A DNA stretch of 64,000 nucleotides from Bryobacterales bacterium. Lineage in GTDB: Bacteria > Acidobacteriota > Terriglobia > Bryobacterales > UBA6623. The stretch lies in the NCBI GenBank assembly GCA_028819215.1, contig JAPPMG010000012.1, positions 1 to 64,000 on the forward strand, given 5' to 3'. Under the pieces are notes generated by a model, which worked only from the letters and a program-made list of their open reading frames with translations, was not told the DNA's origin and did no database searches. The translations under genes and the position numbers were made by a program. Below are positions 7,998 through 64,000 of this stretch, piece by piece (the first letter of the stretch is position 1; every line of letters starts with the position of its first letter).

Positions 7998-8368
7998 AGC
8001 CCCGTCGCCGCGCGATCACGCCGCACGAGAATCCTCGAGACGCTGTACGAGATCTGCTCACGCAGGAGTTCTCCCGGGAAATCGAGGCGCAACGAGACCA
8101 GATCCCCAGTGCCCAGTCGATCCTGCTGGTCGCTCAATTTGATGCGAAGATCCGGCGGCGCTCTGGGGCTGACGCGCTCTTGGCTTGGACCCGTCCACTA
8201 ATGCTCAGTTCCGTCGCCGGACTACTAGCATTCTGGTGGAGTCGCATTGCGGCCGCACCGCTAGAACTGGCCGTCGTAGCTGAGCCGTGGATGCAAGCCA
8301 CCGGACTCGCTGCACTATTGTTTGCGATGGCGTTCGGCTGGACTCGGATGCTGTTGCGGACCGGCTGA
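7994..8368 (+). CDS. putative anti-sigma factor, small membrane protein
   Basis: 124 residues. The N-terminal 60 residues are soluble and charged, and two hydrophobic segments follow (about residues 65-83 and 98-117). The gene overlaps the ECF sigma stop by four bases (ATGA), so translation is coupled. Position and topology fit a membrane-tethered partner of the sigma factor, but I see no zinc-binding H-x3-C-x2-C motif of classic ZAS anti-sigmas. The anti-sigma role is therefore inferred from context only. Confidence 0.6.
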   Translation: MKPRRRAITPHENPRDAVRDLLTQEFSREIEAQRDQIPSAQSILLVAQFDAKIRRRSGADALLAWTRPLMLSSVAGLLAFWWSRIAAAPLELAVVAEPWMQATGLAALLFAMAFGWTRMLLRTG

Positions 8369-8433
8369 GCCATCGGGCAGCCTTGGCCCTACTGTGAGTG
8401 CCCCGCACCACACTGCAACGCCGAGACCAGAAT

Positions 8434-9459
8434 CTATACCTTGCCCTCGTAGCTATTGGCTCTTGCCTCTATATCGGCACAGCGGCCCATGATGTCTTCG
8501 AACGTCTCCTCGTCGCCAAGGAGCATGCCGTCACCGAGCATCCTTCCATAGTCGTCGGCAAGCACGCCGCGCGCCGCTCCGGTCGGAACGAGTTGCAAAC
8601 CGCCCGTCACGGCCGCTGGATAGTCGATCCAACTGCCACCCGTATCCTTCTCTCGAAAGAAGACCGATTTGTGCCGTGCGACGGCGCGCGCGAGCTTGCG
8701 GTCGGCCAGCGCGGTTTCGGCGTAACCGCCTTCGTCCAATCGGACCAAATCGTGCCAGTGCCTAGAAAGCCGGTCGCCGCGACCGCGTTCCCGCTTACAG
8801 AATACGTGCATGGCGGTAGCCTTTTCCCAGAACGTACGCTCGGCCAGCATGACCGATGGGGACGCGGTAGGAAACACCAGGTCGGGCAGGTGTACGGACG
8901 CGTCGCAGACCACAGGACGCCGCTTCCGTGGCTCGCCGGTCGAGCGTGCGCCGAATTCGAGCTTCACTTCCGGTTCAATGAATCCGTAGCTTTCGAAGAG
9001 CGGTGTGTAGCCAATGTAGATCCGGTCCGCATCCGCACGCACCTCAGCATCGCAACCACTCCTGGTCAGACCCTCTTGGATGACGGGCAACGCATGCTCT
9101 CTTGTCCACTCCGCCAATCGGGCCCGGATCGCCCGCGTCCAGCGTTGCTCCTGACTTCGCGTGGGCGGCAGTGGCTCTTCGCCATCGGGTACGAAGTCAG
9201 AAGCAAAGGCCCGAATATCGTAGGTGATGTCAATGTCCTCAGAAAAGCGCCGGATCACGTTGTAGGCCTTTGAGAGCGACGTGCCTCCCTTGAACGCCAG
9301 GTCGTTGGCAAATGGTGCCGAGAAAAGGATGCTCAGGGCTTGGACGACCCAGATGTCCTTTTCGAACAAGTACGGTCTCGTCCTAGTCCGCGCCGCGGCT
9401 ACACCGAGAGCATCGCGACGGTCGTCGGCCGACAGGGATGTAAACCTAGTCTTAGGCAT
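8434..9459 (-). CDS. AbiEii-type nucleotidyltransferase toxin
   Basis: 341 residues of the AbiEii/AbiGii toxin family, the toxin of type IV toxin-antitoxin and phage abortive-infection systems. The nucleotidyltransferase core is clear: AFKGGTSLSKAYN with GGTS at about 58-61, then RFSEDIDITYD with Asp75 and Asp77 as likely metal ligands. A second family block, WEKATAMHVF, lies in the C-terminal half. The frame continues 27 codons upstream, but the ATG at 9459 starts a family-like N-terminus (MPKTRFTSLS) and overlaps the antitoxin gene by 8 bases. AbiEii enzymes transfer nucleotides to tRNA or other targets; the antitoxin represses transcription rather than binding the toxin. Confidence 0.88.
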   Translation of the reverse strand: MPKTRFTSLSADDRRDALGVAAARTRTRPYLFEKDIWVVQALSILFSAPFANDLAFKGGTSLSKAYNVIRRFSEDIDITYDIRAFASDFVPDGEEPLPPTRSQEQRWTRAIRARLAEWTREHALPVIQEGLTRSGCDAEVRADADRIYIGYTPLFESYGFIEPEVKLEFGARSTGEPRKRRPVVCDASVHLPDLVFPTASPSVMLAERTFWEKATAMHVFCKRERGRGDRLSRHWHDLVRLDEGGYAETALADRKLARAVARHKSVFFREKDTGGSWIDYPAAVTGGLQLVPTGAARGVLADDYGRMLGDGMLLGDEETFEDIMGRCADIEARANSYEGKV

Positions 9460-55884: not shown

Positions 55885-57165
55885 TCAGTCCGCCGGACGC
55901 AGGCCTCTCAGCGCAGTCTCGAGCTCAGCCCTCGCTCGCAGCGCTTCTTCGGAGGAGGCGCTGATTGTCAGCGGGGCGACTTCCCCCCTGCCAGCACTCA
56001 TGTCGAAGAGGCGTCCGTCGTCGTACAGCTTCCAGCGTTGCGTGCGCACCCAGCGCGCAGAACTGCCCTCGGCAAAGGCCCATGGGCGCGGTGAAGCGGT
56101 GCCGCCCCGCAGTCGATCGGCCAAGCTGACGCCGTCCAGCCCGGCCGGAACCGTCCCGCCAGCTAGGTCGACGAAGGTCGGGAACCAGTCGCTGAAGTCG
56201 ACCAGATCATCAACGACCTGCCCTGGAGAGAGCTTGCCCGGCCAGTTTGCGACCAGCGGCACGCGGGTGCCTCCATCGGTGAGTTCGCCCTTGCCGCCCT
56301 TGACCCGCTGCCCGTTCCAAACCAGTTCTATGGGTTGCTTGAACATCTTGCCGCCTTCGGCAGTGAAGTAGTACGACTTGGGGGTCCCGTTATCCGCCGT
56401 GAACAGGAACAGCGTGCGCTCTCGAATGCCGAGCTCTTCGACGGCATCGACGAGTCTGCCGACGCGCTCATCCATGTCTTCGACCATCTTCTTGTAGCTG
56501 TCGTAGTGGCCTTGCGGCCCGAGCGGAGGCGGCGTTCCGACATCATCGGTCACGTCGTGCGCCAGCGCCATGGAATAGAACGCAAAGAATGGCTTGTCGC
56601 GGTTGTCGCGCATGAATTCCACGAGGTGTTCGACATAGACATCCGGCCCATAGCGGTCAATGACGTCCGAGCGCACCTTGCCGTCCTGATAGATCAGCGG
56701 CCGGTAGTAGCGCGGCCCCTCGTGCCAGCCGAACAGGGATGATCGTTCAAAGCCCAGTCGTTTGGGATGGTCGGGCTCGTCGCGAAGCAGAGTCAGCTGC
56801 CACTTGCCAGCAATGGCCGTCGCATACCCGAGCCCGCGCATCGCAATGCCAATCGAGGCGCTCTCCAAGTTGCGCGGGAAGGTGCCCCACTGCGGCCGAC
56901 CTAAGCGGAAGGGGTACTGGCCCGTCATGATGGCAATGCGGGAAGGGTGACAAACCGGCATGGAGTAGCAATGGCGGAAGCGGACGCCCGCCTGGGCCAA
57001 TGCATCGATCCGGGGCGTCCGGTACGAGGTTCCGCCGTAGCAGCCCAGCGCTTGGTCCGCAACGTCATCGGCAAGGATGAACACGATGTTCGGTTTGTCG
57101 GCCGCAAGCGCGCGAGTGGTCAGGACCATGGCGAACACCGCGAGGGCGCACTTGAATCTCGTCAT
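55885..57165 (-). CDS. secreted sulfatase
   Basis: 426 residues. A signal peptide (FKCALAVFAMVLTTRALAA) is followed by PNIVFILADDVADQALGCYG with the metal Asp33-Asp34. The formylglycine motif is Cys72-His-Pro-Ser-Arg76 then IAIMTGQYPFRLG. FTADNGTPKSYYFTAEGGK and ELTDGGTRVPLVANWPGK are the later metal and substrate blocks. The frame runs upstream, but the signal begins at the ATG at 57165. Likely an arylsulfatase or glycosaminoglycan/fucoidan-type sulfatase in the periplasm or outside; the substrate is unknown. It is followed by rmlD after 24 bases on the same strand. Confidence 0.92.
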   Translation of the reverse strand: MTRFKCALAVFAMVLTTRALAADKPNIVFILADDVADQALGCYGGTSYRTPRIDALAQAGVRFRHCYSMPVCHPSRIAIMTGQYPFRLGRPQWGTFPRNLESASIGIAMRGLGYATAIAGKWQLTLLRDEPDHPKRLGFERSSLFGWHEGPRYYRPLIYQDGKVRSDVIDRYGPDVYVEHLVEFMRDNRDKPFFAFYSMALAHDVTDDVGTPPPLGPQGHYDSYKKMVEDMDERVGRLVDAVEELGIRERTLFLFTADNGTPKSYYFTAEGGKMFKQPIELVWNGQRVKGGKGELTDGGTRVPLVANWPGKLSPGQVVDDLVDFSDWFPTFVDLAGGTVPAGLDGVSLADRLRGGTASPRPWAFAEGSSARWVRTQRWKLYDDGRLFDMSAGRGEVAPLTISASSEEALRARAELETALRGLRPAD

Positions 57166-57234
57166 CGGCGCCCATCGTACAGCACTGAGCATCGGCGGCG
57201 CGGGGCTAGCCGCGCTGGCGTCTAGAATCAGACT

Positions 57235-58137
57235 GTGACGCAATCCTCGAGCCCAGTAGTCACTGGAGCCACGGGATTCGTGGGACGGCGGCTCTGCAAG
57301 CTGCTGACAAGCCCGCGGATCCTCACACGCGCCCCGGAGCATGTCCCGCCGGAATTCGCTCAGAGCGCGTGCTTCCGCTGGGACCCGGCCCGCGAACTTC
57401 CTCCGGCGGAAGCTTTCGACGGCTGTCAGGCCGTGTTTCACCTAGCCGGCGAGCCAGTTGCAGAGGGGCGCTGGACGAAGGCCAAGAAAGCGAACATCCG
57501 AGACAGCCGCGTCGAGGGGACCAAGCATCTGGTCGAAGCTCTGCGGCAACTCGAGCATCGGCCGGAAGTCCTGGTTTCGGCTTCAGCGGTCGGGATCTAC
57601 GGCAGTCGCGGCGACGAAGTCCTCGCCGAGTCCGCGACGGCGGCAGAGGGCTTCCTTGCCGATGTGTGTCGCGCATGGGAAGCGGAGGCGCTTGCTGCCG
57701 AGGATCTGGGCATGAGAGTCGTCACGATCCGGATCGGTCTCGTGCTCGGCGCGCAAGGCGGGGCTCTGGCCCGAATGCTCCCGCTGTTCAAGCTGTGCGC
57801 CGGAGGGAGGCTCGGCCACGGGAGGCAGTGGATGCCGTGGATCCACGTGGATGATCTAGCTGCCCTGTTCCTTTATTGCGCCCAATCGGAGACGTTGTCC
57901 GGGGCGGTCAATGGCTCCGCGCCGGACCCGGTTACCAACCGACACTTCACCAAGGCACTGGCGACCGCTGTCGGCAGGCCAGCACTCTTCCCGGCCCCGG
58001 CGTTCGCCCTGCGCGTCGGGCTGGGTGAATTCTCCGAGGTGCTGCTGGCGTCGCAGCGCGCAGTGCCGGACAAGGCCCTGAGCGCCGGATTCGAGTTCGA
58101 GCACCCGACCATCGAGACGGCCTTGCAAGGGCTCTGA
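57235..58137 (+). CDS. TIGR01777-family epimerase (SDR, YfcH-like)
   Basis: 300 residues of the atypical SDR family seen as YfcH/SDR39U1. The nucleotide motif is [17 protein letters not shown] at residues 8-24, followed by [20 protein letters not shown] near 75 and [14 protein letters not shown] near 118. [15 protein letters not shown] and the C-terminal [14 protein letters not shown] then [12 protein letters not shown] are typical. The start is GTG. The function is unproven; the family is often linked to cell division or NADP-binding reductase activity. It is divergent from the sulfatase and upstream of another SDR gene. Confidence 0.9.
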
Positions 58138-58980: not shown

Positions 58981-60504
58981 CTACGAATAGTCGCCGCCAG
59001 AGAGGCTGTGGAGCACTGACTCCTGCCACTCGTGCAAGTGCGCCTCCAAGCGCGCGACTTCTTCGGGGTGGCGGTCTGCAAGATCATTGCTCTCAGCCGG
59101 ATCGGCGCGGATGTCAAACAGCTCCCTCGTTCCGGCACCGCCGCCGTCTACCACTAGCTTGTAGCGGTGGTCGAGGACCGCCCGCGGCCCACTGAAGTCG
59201 GCCTCTTCGACGCTGGGGTGATGAAAGTTGCGGAAGTTCCGCGTCAGCCGGCCATCCATGTACTTTACAAGCGGCGTGGTGCCTTCTTGGAGCGCCGCGT
59301 CGATGTACGGCTCGCCGCCATCCGCTTGGCCGGCTTCGAACCTCCAGAAGCAAATCGGCTCCGGCCGTTGCTGCATGGCCCCATCGATGACCGGAACCAA
59401 GCTGAGGCCATCCAGCGGGCGGTCTGGCAGCGATTGGCCGGTGAGTTCGCATAGCGTAGGCAGGATGTCACTGGTCACGGAGTTGACGGGGCTGCGCAGC
59501 GGCTCCGGAATCCGTGCAGGCCACTCGATCACACACGGAACGCGCACACCGCCTTCGTACACCCGGCCTTTGCTCGACCGCAGTGAGGACGAGAAGCGGG
59601 CCTCCGATGGCGCTCCGTTGTCGCTGCAGTACCACAGCAGCGTGTCGGGCCGCAGGTCGGCTTCCCGCAAGTGATCTCTCAGATCTCCGATGGCCCGATC
59701 CATCGCGGTGATTTCGGCGTAGCGGGCCTGCAGGATCTTGTCCAAGCGCACCTGCGTCCGCAAGCCCGTCTCCATCGAGGTGATCCCGGCCGTGTCCTCT
59801 CGCAGGCTCTCTGGAAGATCCGCATACGCTTGGAGGTCGGAGTCCAAGCCACTGTACGGCTCGTGGGGCGAGCCGAACCAGATGACCGCGAAGAAGGGCC
59901 GCCCGTCGCGCTTCGCCTTGTCGATGAATTGCTTAGCCGCGTCGATCACGATCTGAGAACTCTCCCCCTCGTGCATCTCTGGAGCGGCACCGTTTCGCGA
60001 GAGAATCGGGTTCATCTCGAAGAAGTTGTCGTGAGAGAGCCACTCGTCGAATCCGAACGCACCGGGATTCGTTGGCGAATCGGCCTTGACGGGGCCGAGG
60101 TGCCACTTGCCGAAGTGGCCGCAGGCATAGCCGGCTTGGCTCAGCATTTGGGCGATGCCGGTTTCCTCTGGCCGGATCGACCAATTCGCACTGAACGTGC
60201 CGTAACGGTTTGGATGCCGTCCAGTCATCACGCTGCCGCGGGTCGGCGAGCACACAGGCGCGGCCGAGTAGAAGCGATCAAGGCGCAATCCGGACGCGGC
60301 CATTTCGTCGAGCACTGGCGTCTTGACGTGCGAGTGTCCGTTGTATCCCGTTTCGTGCCAGCCGTGGTCGTCTCCCATCAACAGCACGATGTTGGGCCTC
60401 GCCGGGCCCTCCGTCTGGCCAGGGCCGCCAGATGTGCACGAGGACGACACCGACAAAGCGGTTGCGGTGGCAAAGAAGTTCCGACGAGTGAGGGTGTACG
60501 ACAT
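58981..60504 (-). CDS. exported sulfatase, lipoprotein-like or Tat signal
   Basis: 507 residues. The N-terminus has Tat-like LTRRNFFATATALSVSS with a Cys at 23 (SSC) that could be lipidated. Metal residues Asp45-Asp46 (LLMGDDHGW) precede the formylglycine motif Cys85-Ser-Pro-Thr-Arg89, then GSVMTGRHPNRYG. CSDNGAPSEARFSSSLRSSK and VYEGGVRVPCVIEWP are the later family blocks. The substrate is unknown. It is convergent with the SDR gene (8 bases) and preceded on its own strand by the UXS-like gene 140 bases away. Confidence 0.92.
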   Translation of the reverse strand: MSYTLTRRNFFATATALSVSSSCTSGGPGQTEGPARPNIVLLMGDDHGWHETGYNGHSHVKTPVLDEMAASGLRLDRFYSAAPVCSPTRGSVMTGRHPNRYGTFSANWSIRPEETGIAQMLSQAGYACGHFGKWHLGPVKADSPTNPGAFGFDEWLSHDNFFEMNPILSRNGAAPEMHEGESSQIVIDAAKQFIDKAKRDGRPFFAVIWFGSPHEPYSGLDSDLQAYADLPESLREDTAGITSMETGLRTQVRLDKILQARYAEITAMDRAIGDLRDHLREADLRPDTLLWYCSDNGAPSEARFSSSLRSSKGRVYEGGVRVPCVIEWPARIPEPLRSPVNSVTSDILPTLCELTGQSLPDRPLDGLSLVPVIDGAMQQRPEPICFWRFEAGQADGGEPYIDAALQEGTTPLVKYMDGRLTRNFRNFHHPSVEEADFSGPRAVLDHRYKLVVDGGGAGTRELFDIRADPAESNDLADRHPEEVARLEAHLHEWQESVLHSLSGGDYS

Positions 60505-61568: not shown

Positions 61569-61578
61569 GTCTATTGGG

Positions 61579-61621
61579 CTCCCGCCTTCATCGTATGCGG
61601 GCAGGAACCTGCGGGCGGGAG
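61579..61621. repeat. nested inverted repeats upstream of the UXS-like gene
   Basis: CTCCCGCC (61579-61586) pairs exactly with GGCGGGAG (61614-61621), and inside the loop GCAGG (61601-61605) pairs with CCTGC (61608-61612). The element is within 12-55 bases upstream of the UXS-like ATG (61568) and could fold in its leader. The rest of the gap to 61831 shows no gene. Confidence 0.35.
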
Positions 61622-61831
61622 AGCACCGAGCATCCTACTTCCGATCGGGATTCGAGGAATCGGGGAATCCACCTAGATGGTGCCCCAAGGCGTCGGCTGC
61701 AGGAACCGGTCGCTGACAAGGAGGACGCTCGCAAACCAGTCGTCGCGTGTGGTAACGTTCCTCGGAAAGGTCTGCTTCGACCTGACCATCGCCTCATCGG
61801 CCAATCACACTGCAATTTCCGATCGACTGCA

Positions 61832-62749
61832 ATGGGAGTCAAGCTTGTAGTAGCGGTTACTGATGGTGACTGGTTCAAGATGCTTCGACAGCGTCCCGAT
61901 CTGTCCGAGGTCAATTTCTGGTCGCCCGCGCCAAGGAACTTCAAGGCACTCGAACGGGGCGAGTTGTTGCTGTTCAAGTTGCACGCGCCCCACAACTTCA
62001 TCGTCGGCGGAGGGATCTTCGCTTACGCCAACCGGTTACCGAGTTCGCTTGCGTGGGACGCGTTTGGGGAAGCTAACGGTGCGCGCTCGCTGCGACAAAT
62101 GCGGGAGCGCATCGTCAAGTATCGAAAGGATGAAGCAGATCGGCGGGAGGACTTCGCAATCGGTTGCCGGATTCTGACAAGGCCCGTCTTCTTCCCAGAG
62201 AGCGACTGGATACCTGTGCCGTCGAGTTGGGCCCCGAATATCGTGTCGTTCAAGCGATACGACACCGACGAGTCCGACGGCCGGCGGCTGTGGGACTCTG
62301 TCACGGACCGAATTGGCCGACAGGAAGTTACCGACCAAACAATCCATGCAGATCGCTACGGCCAGCCGCAGCTGATTCTCCCTCGCCGTGGCCAAGGGGA
62401 GTTTCGGTTGCTCGTCACCGACATCTACGGGCGACGGTGTGCTGTGACTCAAGAACGCACGCTGCCAGCCCTCGAAGCCGCTCATATCCGTCCTTTCAGC
62501 GATGGGGGCGAGCACACGCCGCAGAACGGCCTCCTGCTCCGACGCGATATCCACCGGCTCTTTGACACCGGCTATGTGACGATCACGCCCGATCTGAACT
62601 TTGAGGTCAGCCCGCGAATTCGCGATGAGTTCGAAAACGGCAGAGATTACTATTCCTTGCAGGGTAAACGGATCGTCACACCTCACCGCCCGGACCTACG
62701 CCCCGATCCGAACGCACTGTCATGGCATAACGAGCACTGCTTCTTGTAG
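61832..62749 (+). CDS. HNH endonuclease with N-terminal PUA/EVE-like domain
   Basis: 305 residues. The C-terminal HNH_2-type nuclease is clear: VTDIYGRRCAVTQERT (Cys203) then LEAAHIRPFSDGG with His218, Asn232 in QNGLLLRRDIH and His241. The N-terminal half (about residues 5-160) has RNFKALERGELLLFKLHAP, NFIVGGGIFAYANRL and SLAWDAFGEANGARS, a pattern resembling PUA/EVE-type modified-base readers. Such fusions occur in predicted modification-dependent restriction enzymes (COG3440-like). The frame extends upstream, but MGVKLVVAVTDGDW at 61832 starts the domain. A second HNH gene follows after 15 bases, suggesting an operon. The domain call for the N-terminus is inference. Confidence 0.85.
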   Translation: MGVKLVVAVTDGDWFKMLRQRPDLSEVNFWSPAPRNFKALERGELLLFKLHAPHNFIVGGGIFAYANRLPSSLAWDAFGEANGARSLRQMRERIVKYRKDEADRREDFAIGCRILTRPVFFPESDWIPVPSSWAPNIVSFKRYDTDESDGRRLWDSVTDRIGRQEVTDQTIHADRYGQPQLILPRRGQGEFRLLVTDIYGRRCAVTQERTLPALEAAHIRPFSDGGEHTPQNGLLLRRDIHRLFDTGYVTITPDLNFEVSPRIRDEFENGRDYYSLQGKRIVTPHRPDLRPDPNALSWHNEHCFL

Positions 62750-62764
62750 ACGAGGCACGTGGCA

Positions 62765-63727
62765 ATGGTTGAAGACTCGTCGAACACGCTGATGCGCATG
62801 GCGGCATTCCAGCGCGTGCAGGAACTTCAGCAAGTCTACGGGCACCTGACCGCGAAGGAACTAAGACTGGGGTTTGATTTCGACGGCAAACGCATCCCGC
62901 TGGTCAATCCACAACGCGGCATCTTCAAGCCGAAGCAGATGCAATTCCTGCTTTCGATCAGAACCGTGTTCCCCAGGCCGGGCGGCAAGGTTTGGTACGA
63001 CGACCAACGCAAGGTCCACCGCCAGATATACGGAAGCGACGAAAGCGTCGACTACGCCTTCATGGGCAGCAATCCCAACGCGGCCGACAATCGCTGGCTC
63101 CGCGAGGCCTTCGAGAACCGCATTGCCGTGATCTACTTCCTCGGCATAGCTCCAGGCCGGTATCAAGCAACGCTGCCTACCTTCATCTCAGGCTGGGACG
63201 CCAACACGCTAAAGGCAAGCCTTGCCTTCGGACTTCCTGCACGAGAGGGCGCAATCCATCAGGGCTCGTTGTCGGAGGCCGTCATCGGCGCGTATCCGGA
63301 CAGCTCGCTAGAACGACGCTATGCGCTCCAATCGGTCAAGCGCCGGCTACATCAGTCATCCTTTCGCGAGGCCATCATCCATGCCTATAACGGTCGCTGC
63401 GCAGTTTCGGGAATACCGGAGCCCTTGCTCCTAGATGCGGCGCATATTGTCCCGGACAAGCACGAGGAACTTGGCCAGCCAGTGATCCCGAACGGCCTGC
63501 CTCTGTCGAAGATTCACCACGCAGCGTTCGACTCGCACCTCATTGGTATCGACCCGGACTACCGCTTACATGTCTCCGAGCGACTGCTCGACAAGGAAGA
63601 CGGCCCGCTCTTGGAATCTCTCAAGCACCTCGACGGTAGCGCGATTCATCTGCCTAGCCGGCATACGGACCGGCCAGACCGGGAGCGGCTTGCGCTGCGC
63701 TTCGAATCTTTCAAAGCAGCCGCGTGA
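62765..63727 (+). CDS. HNH endonuclease, putative restriction enzyme (COG3440-like)
   Basis: About 320 residues. The HNH core is RCAVSGIPEPLLLDAAHIVP (His227), NGLPLSKIHHAAFDSHLIGI with Asn243 and His251-His252. The N-terminal half has RGIFKPKQMQFLLSI, KVWYDDQRKVHRQIYGSDES and RIAVIYFLGIAPGRYQATLP, an arrangement seen in predicted restriction endonucleases and reminiscent of an SRA-like base-flipping domain. A GTG at 62759 adds two residues; the ATG at 62765 is preferred. It follows the first HNH gene by 15 bases, so the two may be a functional pair. No methyltransferase lies nearby. Confidence 0.85.
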   Translation: MVEDSSNTLMRMAAFQRVQELQQVYGHLTAKELRLGFDFDGKRIPLVNPQRGIFKPKQMQFLLSIRTVFPRPGGKVWYDDQRKVHRQIYGSDESVDYAFMGSNPNAADNRWLREAFENRIAVIYFLGIAPGRYQATLPTFISGWDANTLKASLAFGLPAREGAIHQGSLSEAVIGAYPDSSLERRYALQSVKRRLHQSSFREAIIHAYNGRCAVSGIPEPLLLDAAHIVPDKHEELGQPVIPNGLPLSKIHHAAFDSHLIGIDPDYRLHVSERLLDKEDGPLLESLKHLDGSAIHLPSRHTDRPDRERLALRFESFKAAA

Positions 63728-63887
63728 TTCCCGAATCCAACTCGCTCCGGTGCTGACGCGGCGGTTCGGCCAGCGGGATTGACGAAGGCCAGAAGCCCCG
63801 CAGTGCACTCGACATGTCCCACATGCGTGGTGCGACGCACTGTGCCGAAGCACACCTTCAGCTGCACCAGGCTGGTCAAGCTGGTGT

Positions 63888-64000
63888 CTAGCGCATGAAC
63901 TGCGGAGCCGGCCCCGTCCAGACGGCGGGCGCACCGTCCCCCGGCGATGGCGCGGGGGATCCTGATGGGTCCAGGTCATGCACTTGCCCTGCAAGAATCG
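63888..64000 (-). CDS. possible C-terminal fragment of a gene running off the window
   Basis: On the minus strand a frame is open from the window edge to a TAG at 63888-63890 and ends in PAVWTGPAPQFMR. The composition looks protein-like (Gly, Pro, aromatic), but only 37 codons are seen and no family is recognised. The tail of the window between 63728 and 63887 shows no other gene. Confidence 0.25.
   Translation of the reverse strand, partial: ILAGQVHDLDPSGSPAPSPGDGAPAVWTGPAPQFMR

What the first reader, a model, noticed from the sequence alone, without database searches (positions are those of the whole stretch)
61832..63727. Tandem HNH nucleases with two different candidate modified-base reader domains
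Two adjacent, same-strand genes each end in a complete HNH nuclease (His218/Asn232/His241 and His227/Asn243/His251) but have unrelated N-terminal halves: one resembles a PUA/EVE-type reader, the other an SRA-like region. No methyltransferase is beside them, which argues for a modification-dependent (type IV) restriction system. A coupled pair of distinct HNH readers is not a standard named system and may recognise two modifications or cut as a heterodimer.
Basis: partly seen in the sequence, partly recalled or inferred. Interest (0 to 1): 0.7.

Follow-up and report, generated by a model that had tools for sequence, protein, structure and literature searches.

The report
Paired modified-DNA-cutting nuclease genes
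Two neighbouring genes make DNA-cutting enzymes that each carry a different domain for sensing chemically modified DNA, and this gene pair recurs in bacteria of several phyla, so it is probably a small mobile defence unit against phages with modified genomes.

Summary
Window 61832-62749 (gene 1) and 62765-63727 (gene 2) are adjacent same-strand genes, each ending in an intact HNH_2 nuclease domain with the named catalytic residues. AlphaFold plus fold search shows two different PUA-superfamily readers. Gene 1 is ASCH/EVE/YTH-like and closest overall to VcaM4I (EVE-HNH) and TagI. Gene 2 has an SRA fold with conserved candidate pocket tyrosines. The pair is no accident: it recurs in 23 of 75 informative gene-1 loci, usually 14-40 nt apart, in Acidobacteriota, Pseudomonadota, Nitrospinota, Gemmatimonadota, Latescibacterota and an IMG/VR contig; the two trees are correlated. 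Six further gene-1 loci have another HNH_2 nuclease beside them. A sister genome has the flanking genes adjacent, without the pair. No methyltransferase is beside it here. Most likely it is a compact type IV (modification-dependent) cassette of two independently competent nucleases with different modification ranges. Against an obligate heterodimer, most gene-1 and several gene-2 homologues occur alone with intact catalytic residues. The genome encodes C5-cytosine methyltransferases, so 5mC in every context is an unlikely target. Each enzyme type is known; I found no description of the conserved pair. Cleavage specificity and heterodimer formation are untested.

The parts
61832..62749 (+). Gene 1: PUA-superfamily (ASCH/EVE-like) reader fused to HNH_2 nuclease, 305 aa
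   Evidence: ORF; HNH_2 E 5.2e-13; AlphaFold pLDDT 86; VcaM4I/TagI/ASCH fold matches
61832..62326 (+). Reader domain of gene 1, residues 1-165; invariant N28 F29 W30 P32 W75 F78 N82 F120 P130
   Evidence: Z 11.8 to Zymomonas ASCH 5guq, 7.8 to human THYN1 (EVE), 7.7 to YTH domains; 66/66 conservation
62384..62746 (+). HNH nuclease domain of gene 1, residues 185-305; His218 62483-62485, Asn232 62525-62527, His241 62552-62554
62750..62764 (+). 15-nt spacer with GAGG (62752-62755) ahead of the ATG of gene 2: likely one transcript
   Evidence: sequence; short spacing conserved in relatives
62765..63727 (+). Gene 2: SRA-fold reader fused to HNH_2 nuclease, 320 aa
   Evidence: ORF; HNH_2 E 1.7e-11; SRA fold Z up to 9.3
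62765..63259 (+). SRA-fold domain of gene 2, residues 1-165; pocket candidates Tyr78 62996-62998, Asp80 63002-63004, Tyr97 63053-63055
   Evidence: the top structural matches are SRA-containing proteins and modification-dependent nucleases; Y78, D80, Y97 invariant in 23/23 and in five plasmid homologues
63317..63724 (+). HNH nuclease domain of gene 2, residues 185-320; His227 63443-63445, Asn243 63491-63493, His251 63515-63517
61569..63977 (.). Insertion slot: between the epimerase gene (start 61568, - strand) and the enolase-superfamily gene (start 63978, + strand). In sister genome G088 these two genes lie about 380 bp apart without the pair

Best explanation
The two genes form a small horizontally moving type IV (modification-dependent) restriction cassette. 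Each protein has an N-terminal PUA-superfamily reader that should flip and bind a modified base, most likely a modified cytosine: an SRA domain in gene 2, an ASCH/EVE-like domain in gene 1. Each has a C-terminal beta-beta-alpha-metal HNH nuclease that, as in VcaM4I and TagI, should dimerise through the HNH domain and cut both strands near the mark. The readers differ, so the two enzymes probably cover different modifications or sequence contexts and widen protection against phages with modified genomes. Shown here: both ORFs, intact active sites, purifying selection, different reader folds (by prediction), recurrent tandem pairing, correlated phylogenies, an empty site in a sister genome. Inferred: modified-base binding, cleavage, homodimer action, phage defence.
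For: HNH_2 in both. Gene-1 profile matches VcaM4I over residues 128-305 at E 5e-18. Gene-1 fold: TagI Z 14.1 (107 residues, mainly its HNH part), VcaM4I Z 12.8, ASCH Z 11.8. Gene-2 fold: SUVH5/6, ScoMcrA, TagI and MspJI SRA, Z 7.5-9.3. Gene 2 keeps a Tyr pair (Y78, Y97) whose spacing is 12 residues in the three shortest homologues, as for Tyr55/Tyr67 of TagI (PMC6212794). Pairing in 23 of 75 informative loci across phyla. Distance matrices of the two proteins correlate, r 0.72, Mantel p 1e-4. In 44 gene-1 genomes there are 48 other HNH_2 domains, and in 22 genomes two HNH_2 domains lie within 2.5 kb of each other, chance expectation about 0.05. Type I R-M and GmrSD genes are recurrent neighbours elsewhere. 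Empty site in a sister genome. Solo homologues keep the active site. dN/dS 0.12-0.16.
Against: No cleavage or binding data. Neither reader is detectable by sequence, so the assignment rests on predicted structures. The gene-2 HNH part is modelled poorly (pLDDT 36-67 per block). The SRA acid is at Y+2 (D80) here but at Y+3 in TagI. The host encodes several C5-cytosine methyltransferases, so a general 5mC nuclease would attack its own DNA. The 44-genome set was picked to include the paired loci. The window region itself is not a defence island.
Confidence: 0.66

Rival explanations
1. The two proteins assemble as a heterodimer through their homologous HNH domains, so that cleavage needs, or is stimulated by, two different marks (an AND gate) or cuts each strand with a different subunit, like a type IV version of type IIT enzymes.
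For: HNH domains of the two are homologous (36% over residues 180-297). VcaM4I and TagI dimerise through HNH. Partners of gene 1 are preferentially other HNH_2 proteins: 23 SRA-HNH plus 6 other HNH_2 neighbours. Host C5 methyltransferases would favour a two-key enzyme.
Against: 52 of 75 gene-1 loci have no gene 2 beside them. Gene 2 occurs without gene 1 in three sister genomes and on plasmids. Both keep full active sites when alone.
Confidence: 0.17
2. Ordinary restriction nucleases protected by an unlinked methyltransferase (orphan type II-like halves), with the PUA domains used as plain DNA-binding or self-discriminating modules.
For: The genome carries several C5 methyltransferases elsewhere; some relatives neighbour complete type I R-M systems.
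Against: No consistent methyltransferase neighbour in the paired loci; SRA and ASCH/EVE folds are characteristic modified-base readers.
Confidence: 0.08
3. Defence-island drift: two unrelated type IV enzymes that are neighbours only because defence genes cluster and move together, without functional coupling.
For: Gene 1 also neighbours type I R-M, GmrSD and other nucleases; pairing is patchy on the gene-1 tree, at least 5 changes forced by starred branches.
Against: Fixed order, strand and 14-40 nt spacing in most pairs, correlated trees; in the window the pair stands outside any island.
Confidence: 0.09

Closest known systems
VcaM4I (EVE-HNH, PDB 6YEX)
   Same: For gene 1: PUA-superfamily reader, linker helix, homologous HNH_2-type C-terminus; best Foldseek hit, E 3e-10
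   Different: Reader of gene 1 fits ASCH domains better than classical EVE and shows no sequence match to the VcaM4I reader; gene 1 is often paired or tied to type I R-M; VcaM4I is described as a single enzyme (PMC7897488)
TagI and ScoMcrA (SRA-HNH, SBD-SRA-HNH)
   Same: For gene 2: SRA fold, HNH C-terminus, pocket tyrosines
GmrSD / BrxU and type IV systems embedded among other restriction systems
   Same: Type IV enzymes stacked with other restriction systems for complementary coverage
   Different: No NTPase domain here; different nuclease and reader families
Type IIT heterodimeric restriction enzymes (e.g. BbvCI)
   Same: Two adjacent genes for two nuclease subunits
   Different: No linked methyltransferase; heterodimer not shown; each gene common alone

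Membership tests
EVE-HNH modification-dependent endonuclease (VcaM4I type), gene 1 | C-terminal HNH of the VcaM4I/TagI kind with catalytic His-Asn-His | tested here: met
EVE-HNH modification-dependent endonuclease (VcaM4I type), gene 1 | N-terminal EVE subclass domain | tested here: inconclusive
   PUA superfamily clear, but ASCH Z 11.8 ranks above EVE THYN1 Z 7.8 and YTH Z 7.7
EVE-HNH modification-dependent endonuclease (VcaM4I type), gene 1 | Linker helix between reader and nuclease | tested here: met
   helix 148-168 in the model, followed by a low-confidence stretch 168-178
EVE-HNH modification-dependent endonuclease (VcaM4I type), gene 1 | Cuts DNA only when modified | not testable with these tools
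   needs biochemistry
SRA-HNH modification-dependent endonuclease (TagI type), gene 2 | SRA fold of the N-terminal domain | tested here: met
   Z 9.3 SUVH6, 9.1 SUVH5, 8.8 ScoMcrA SRA, 7.7 TagI; Foldseek E 0.02 at best, probability 0.94; N-terminal pLDDT mostly 77-91
SRA-HNH modification-dependent endonuclease (TagI type), gene 2 | Base pocket Tyr...Asp...Tyr (TagI Y55, D58, Y67) | tested here: inconclusive
   Y78 and Y97 invariant, spacing 12 in short homologues; D80 invariant but at Y+2 instead of Y+3; no residue-level superposition made
SRA-HNH modification-dependent endonuclease (TagI type), gene 2 | HNH catalytic His-Asn-His | tested here: met
   23/23
Type IV restriction system | No cognate methyltransferase | tested here: met
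   none beside the pair in the window nor recurrently in paired loci; unlinked C5 methyltransferases exist in the genome
Type IV restriction system | Restricts modified DNA in vivo | not testable with these tools
   needs plating or transformation assays
Heterodimeric (type IIT-like) restriction enzyme | The two subunits form one enzyme | not testable with these tools
   no complex prediction available; frequent solo occurrence argues against an obligate complex

The most novel reading that the evidence does not exclude
The pair is a two-key type IV enzyme: a mixed HNH dimer whose SRA and ASCH/EVE-like readers must (or preferentially) engage two different marks. This would let a host that methylates its own cytosines still destroy phage DNA carrying a second or bulkier modification, and HNH_2 partners would be exchangeable modules.
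Probability: 0.15. Interest if true: 0.78.

Novelty: new variant of a known kind. Interest (0 to 1): 0.45.

Why it matters
It turns two single-enzyme families into a conserved, mobile two-reader unit found across several phyla. It also raises a directly testable question: whether phage defence against modified DNA uses paired readers for breadth or for coincidence detection. New SRA and ASCH-like readers are also candidate tools for mapping modified cytosines.

Tried and rejected
Sequence-only assignment of the readers failed: no Pfam reader match, no PDB profile match for the SRA half, and only chance hits for the ASCH/EVE half. NCBIfam 'phosphorothioated DNA-binding restriction endonuclease' matches only the HNH part, far below its cut-off, so no sulfur-binding claim is made. 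Recent tandem duplication of one gene was rejected: the readers differ in fold and the HNH domains share only about 35%. A lone curiosity of this genome was rejected by the survey. A homing-endonuclease or selfish-HNH reading was considered and set aside: a reader domain is present, no intron or host-gene disruption was seen, and the pair lies in an intergenic slot. An obligate heterodimer was set aside because solo copies are common. A GIY-YIG-like partner beside gene 1 in L038 and L062 was noted by eye only (no Pfam match for L038).

Full report
Observation. Both carry Pfam HNH_2 above its cut-off, and these are the only two HNH_2 domains found in the 5.86 Mb genome. Both genes are under purifying selection (dN/dS 0.12-0.16 for the window's copies against three sister genomes).

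Readers. Neither N-terminal half is recognised by sequence. AlphaFold models built on relatives (66 and 23 sequences) were compared with the PDB. Gene 1 (pLDDT 86) matches VcaM4I and TagI as whole proteins, and its first 165 residues match ASCH domains (Z 11.8), then EVE and YTH domains (Z 7-8), i.e. the PUA superfamily. Gene 2 (N-terminal pLDDT mostly 77-91, HNH part poor) matches SRA domains of SUVH5, SUVH6, KRYPTONITE, ScoMcrA, TagI, MspJI and UHRF1; the best clearly unrelated fold scores Z 5.2 against Z 9.3 for the best SRA. Tyr78 and Tyr97 are invariant and 12 residues apart in the three shortest homologues; TagI uses Tyr55 and Tyr67, also 12 apart, plus Asp58 (PMC6212794). Here the invariant acid is Asp80, one position off, so the pocket assignment is likely but not proven.

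The pair elsewhere. A scan of 84,980 species genomes with gene 1 found 221 relatives; the best 80 were read. With the window and viral contigs, 75 gene-1 loci have enough downstream sequence; 23 have gene 2 next, in the same order and strand, 14-40 nt apart in most (one 102 nt). Two of the 23 are incomplete: L048, where gene 2 is interrupted, and L064, cut by the contig end. Hosts are Acidobacteriota, alpha-, beta- and gammaproteobacteria, Nitrospinota, Gemmatimonadota and Latescibacterota; an IMG/VR contig (L015) has it too. Pairwise distances of gene 1 and gene 2 correlate (r 0.72, 21 pairs, Mantel p 1e-4; 0.87 in an 11-pair subset), as expected if they travel together, although host descent can contribute. 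Pairing is scattered over the gene-1 tree, so the partner has been gained or lost several times; L059 keeps a gene-2 remnant.

A wider rule. Apart from gene 2, the commonest family among immediate neighbours of gene 1 is again HNH_2 (one of its seven hits is a piece of a broken gene 1 in L069). Six loci have a different HNH_2 protein touching gene 1: L037, L041, L063, L068, L091 and L103 (L063 and L068 are near-identical relatives, and the L063 and L103 proteins were placed by BLAST clustering with L068). In 44 genomes with gene 1 there are 48 other HNH_2 domains, and in 22 genomes two HNH_2 domains lie within 2.5 kb; about 0.05 would be expected by chance. The 44 were chosen to include the paired loci, so the proportion is inflated, but the excess over chance is not in doubt. 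Type I R-M gene clusters occur beside gene 1 in about 12 loci (specificity subunits confirmed by Pfam in several), and GmrSD proteins are among the neighbours. These contexts support a restriction role.

The locus. In the window the pair is not in a defence island. In sister genome G088 the two flanking genes (epimerase and enolase-superfamily) lie about 380 bp apart with no pair; in G086 the same gap holds an ammonium-transporter-like gene instead (by eye from its sequence). Within the genus seven of eleven genomes have an intact adjacent pair, one has pieces on contig ends, and three have gene 2 without gene 1; the sampled other genera of the family and order show no full-length copy of either gene. 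This is the pattern expected of a horizontally acquired two-gene unit.

Mechanism. By analogy with VcaM4I and TagI, each protein should flip a modified base into its reader, relieve autoinhibition and cut nearby as an HNH dimer (PMC7897488; PMC6212794). Solo copies with intact active sites argue that each gene works alone, so I favour two complementary type IV enzymes in one transcript. A constraint from the genome: it encodes several C5-cytosine methyltransferases, as do all sampled members of the genus. A nuclease for 5mC in any context would be self-harming, so the targets are probably bulkier cytosine marks (for example 5hmC or glucosylated 5hmC), particular contexts, or combinations of marks. 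The last possibility, a mixed dimer with two keys, is the most novel reading and is not excluded.

Known or new. Each enzyme is a new member of a known kind. Searches of the held open-access literature found single EVE-HNH and SRA-HNH enzymes and their reviews but no description of a conserved tandem of the two. That absence is limited to that library and to my terms.

Noticed in passing
L038:2455-3261 and L062:1827-2633: Directly downstream (3 nt) of gene-1 homologues lies a 268-aa protein with a GIY-YIG-like motif (KGIYLI...KRYIGSA, by eye; no Pfam match): possibly another modification-dependent nuclease taking the partner place of gene 2.
   Followed up: partly
L041:3902-7313: A GmrSD_N protein, a different HNH_2 protein and a gene-1 homologue in a row: a stack of candidate type IV enzymes.
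   Followed up: partly
L015:2010-7318: On an IMG/VR contig the pair follows an AAA ATPase gene and an IetS-like subtilase (PADLOC IetS E 7e-110), i.e. next to another defence system.
   Followed up: partly
G084:C5:588041-588808 (genome handle): A second, decayed copy of the same pair (gene-1 remnant with a TGA, gene-2 fragments) besides the intact one on C2.
   Followed up: no
L009:1-2021 and 8001-8927: In Methylibium petroleiphilum a solo gene-2 homologue lies 6 kb from a DNA phosphorothioation-associated putative methyltransferase.
   Followed up: no
L023:3315-4250: A distant gene-1 homologue on a viral contig lies near a protein that looks like a C5-cytosine methyltransferase (by eye).
   Followed up: no
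window 55885-57441 and 58981-60504: At least two sulfatase-like genes stand close together near the pair (assigned by eye).
   Followed up: no
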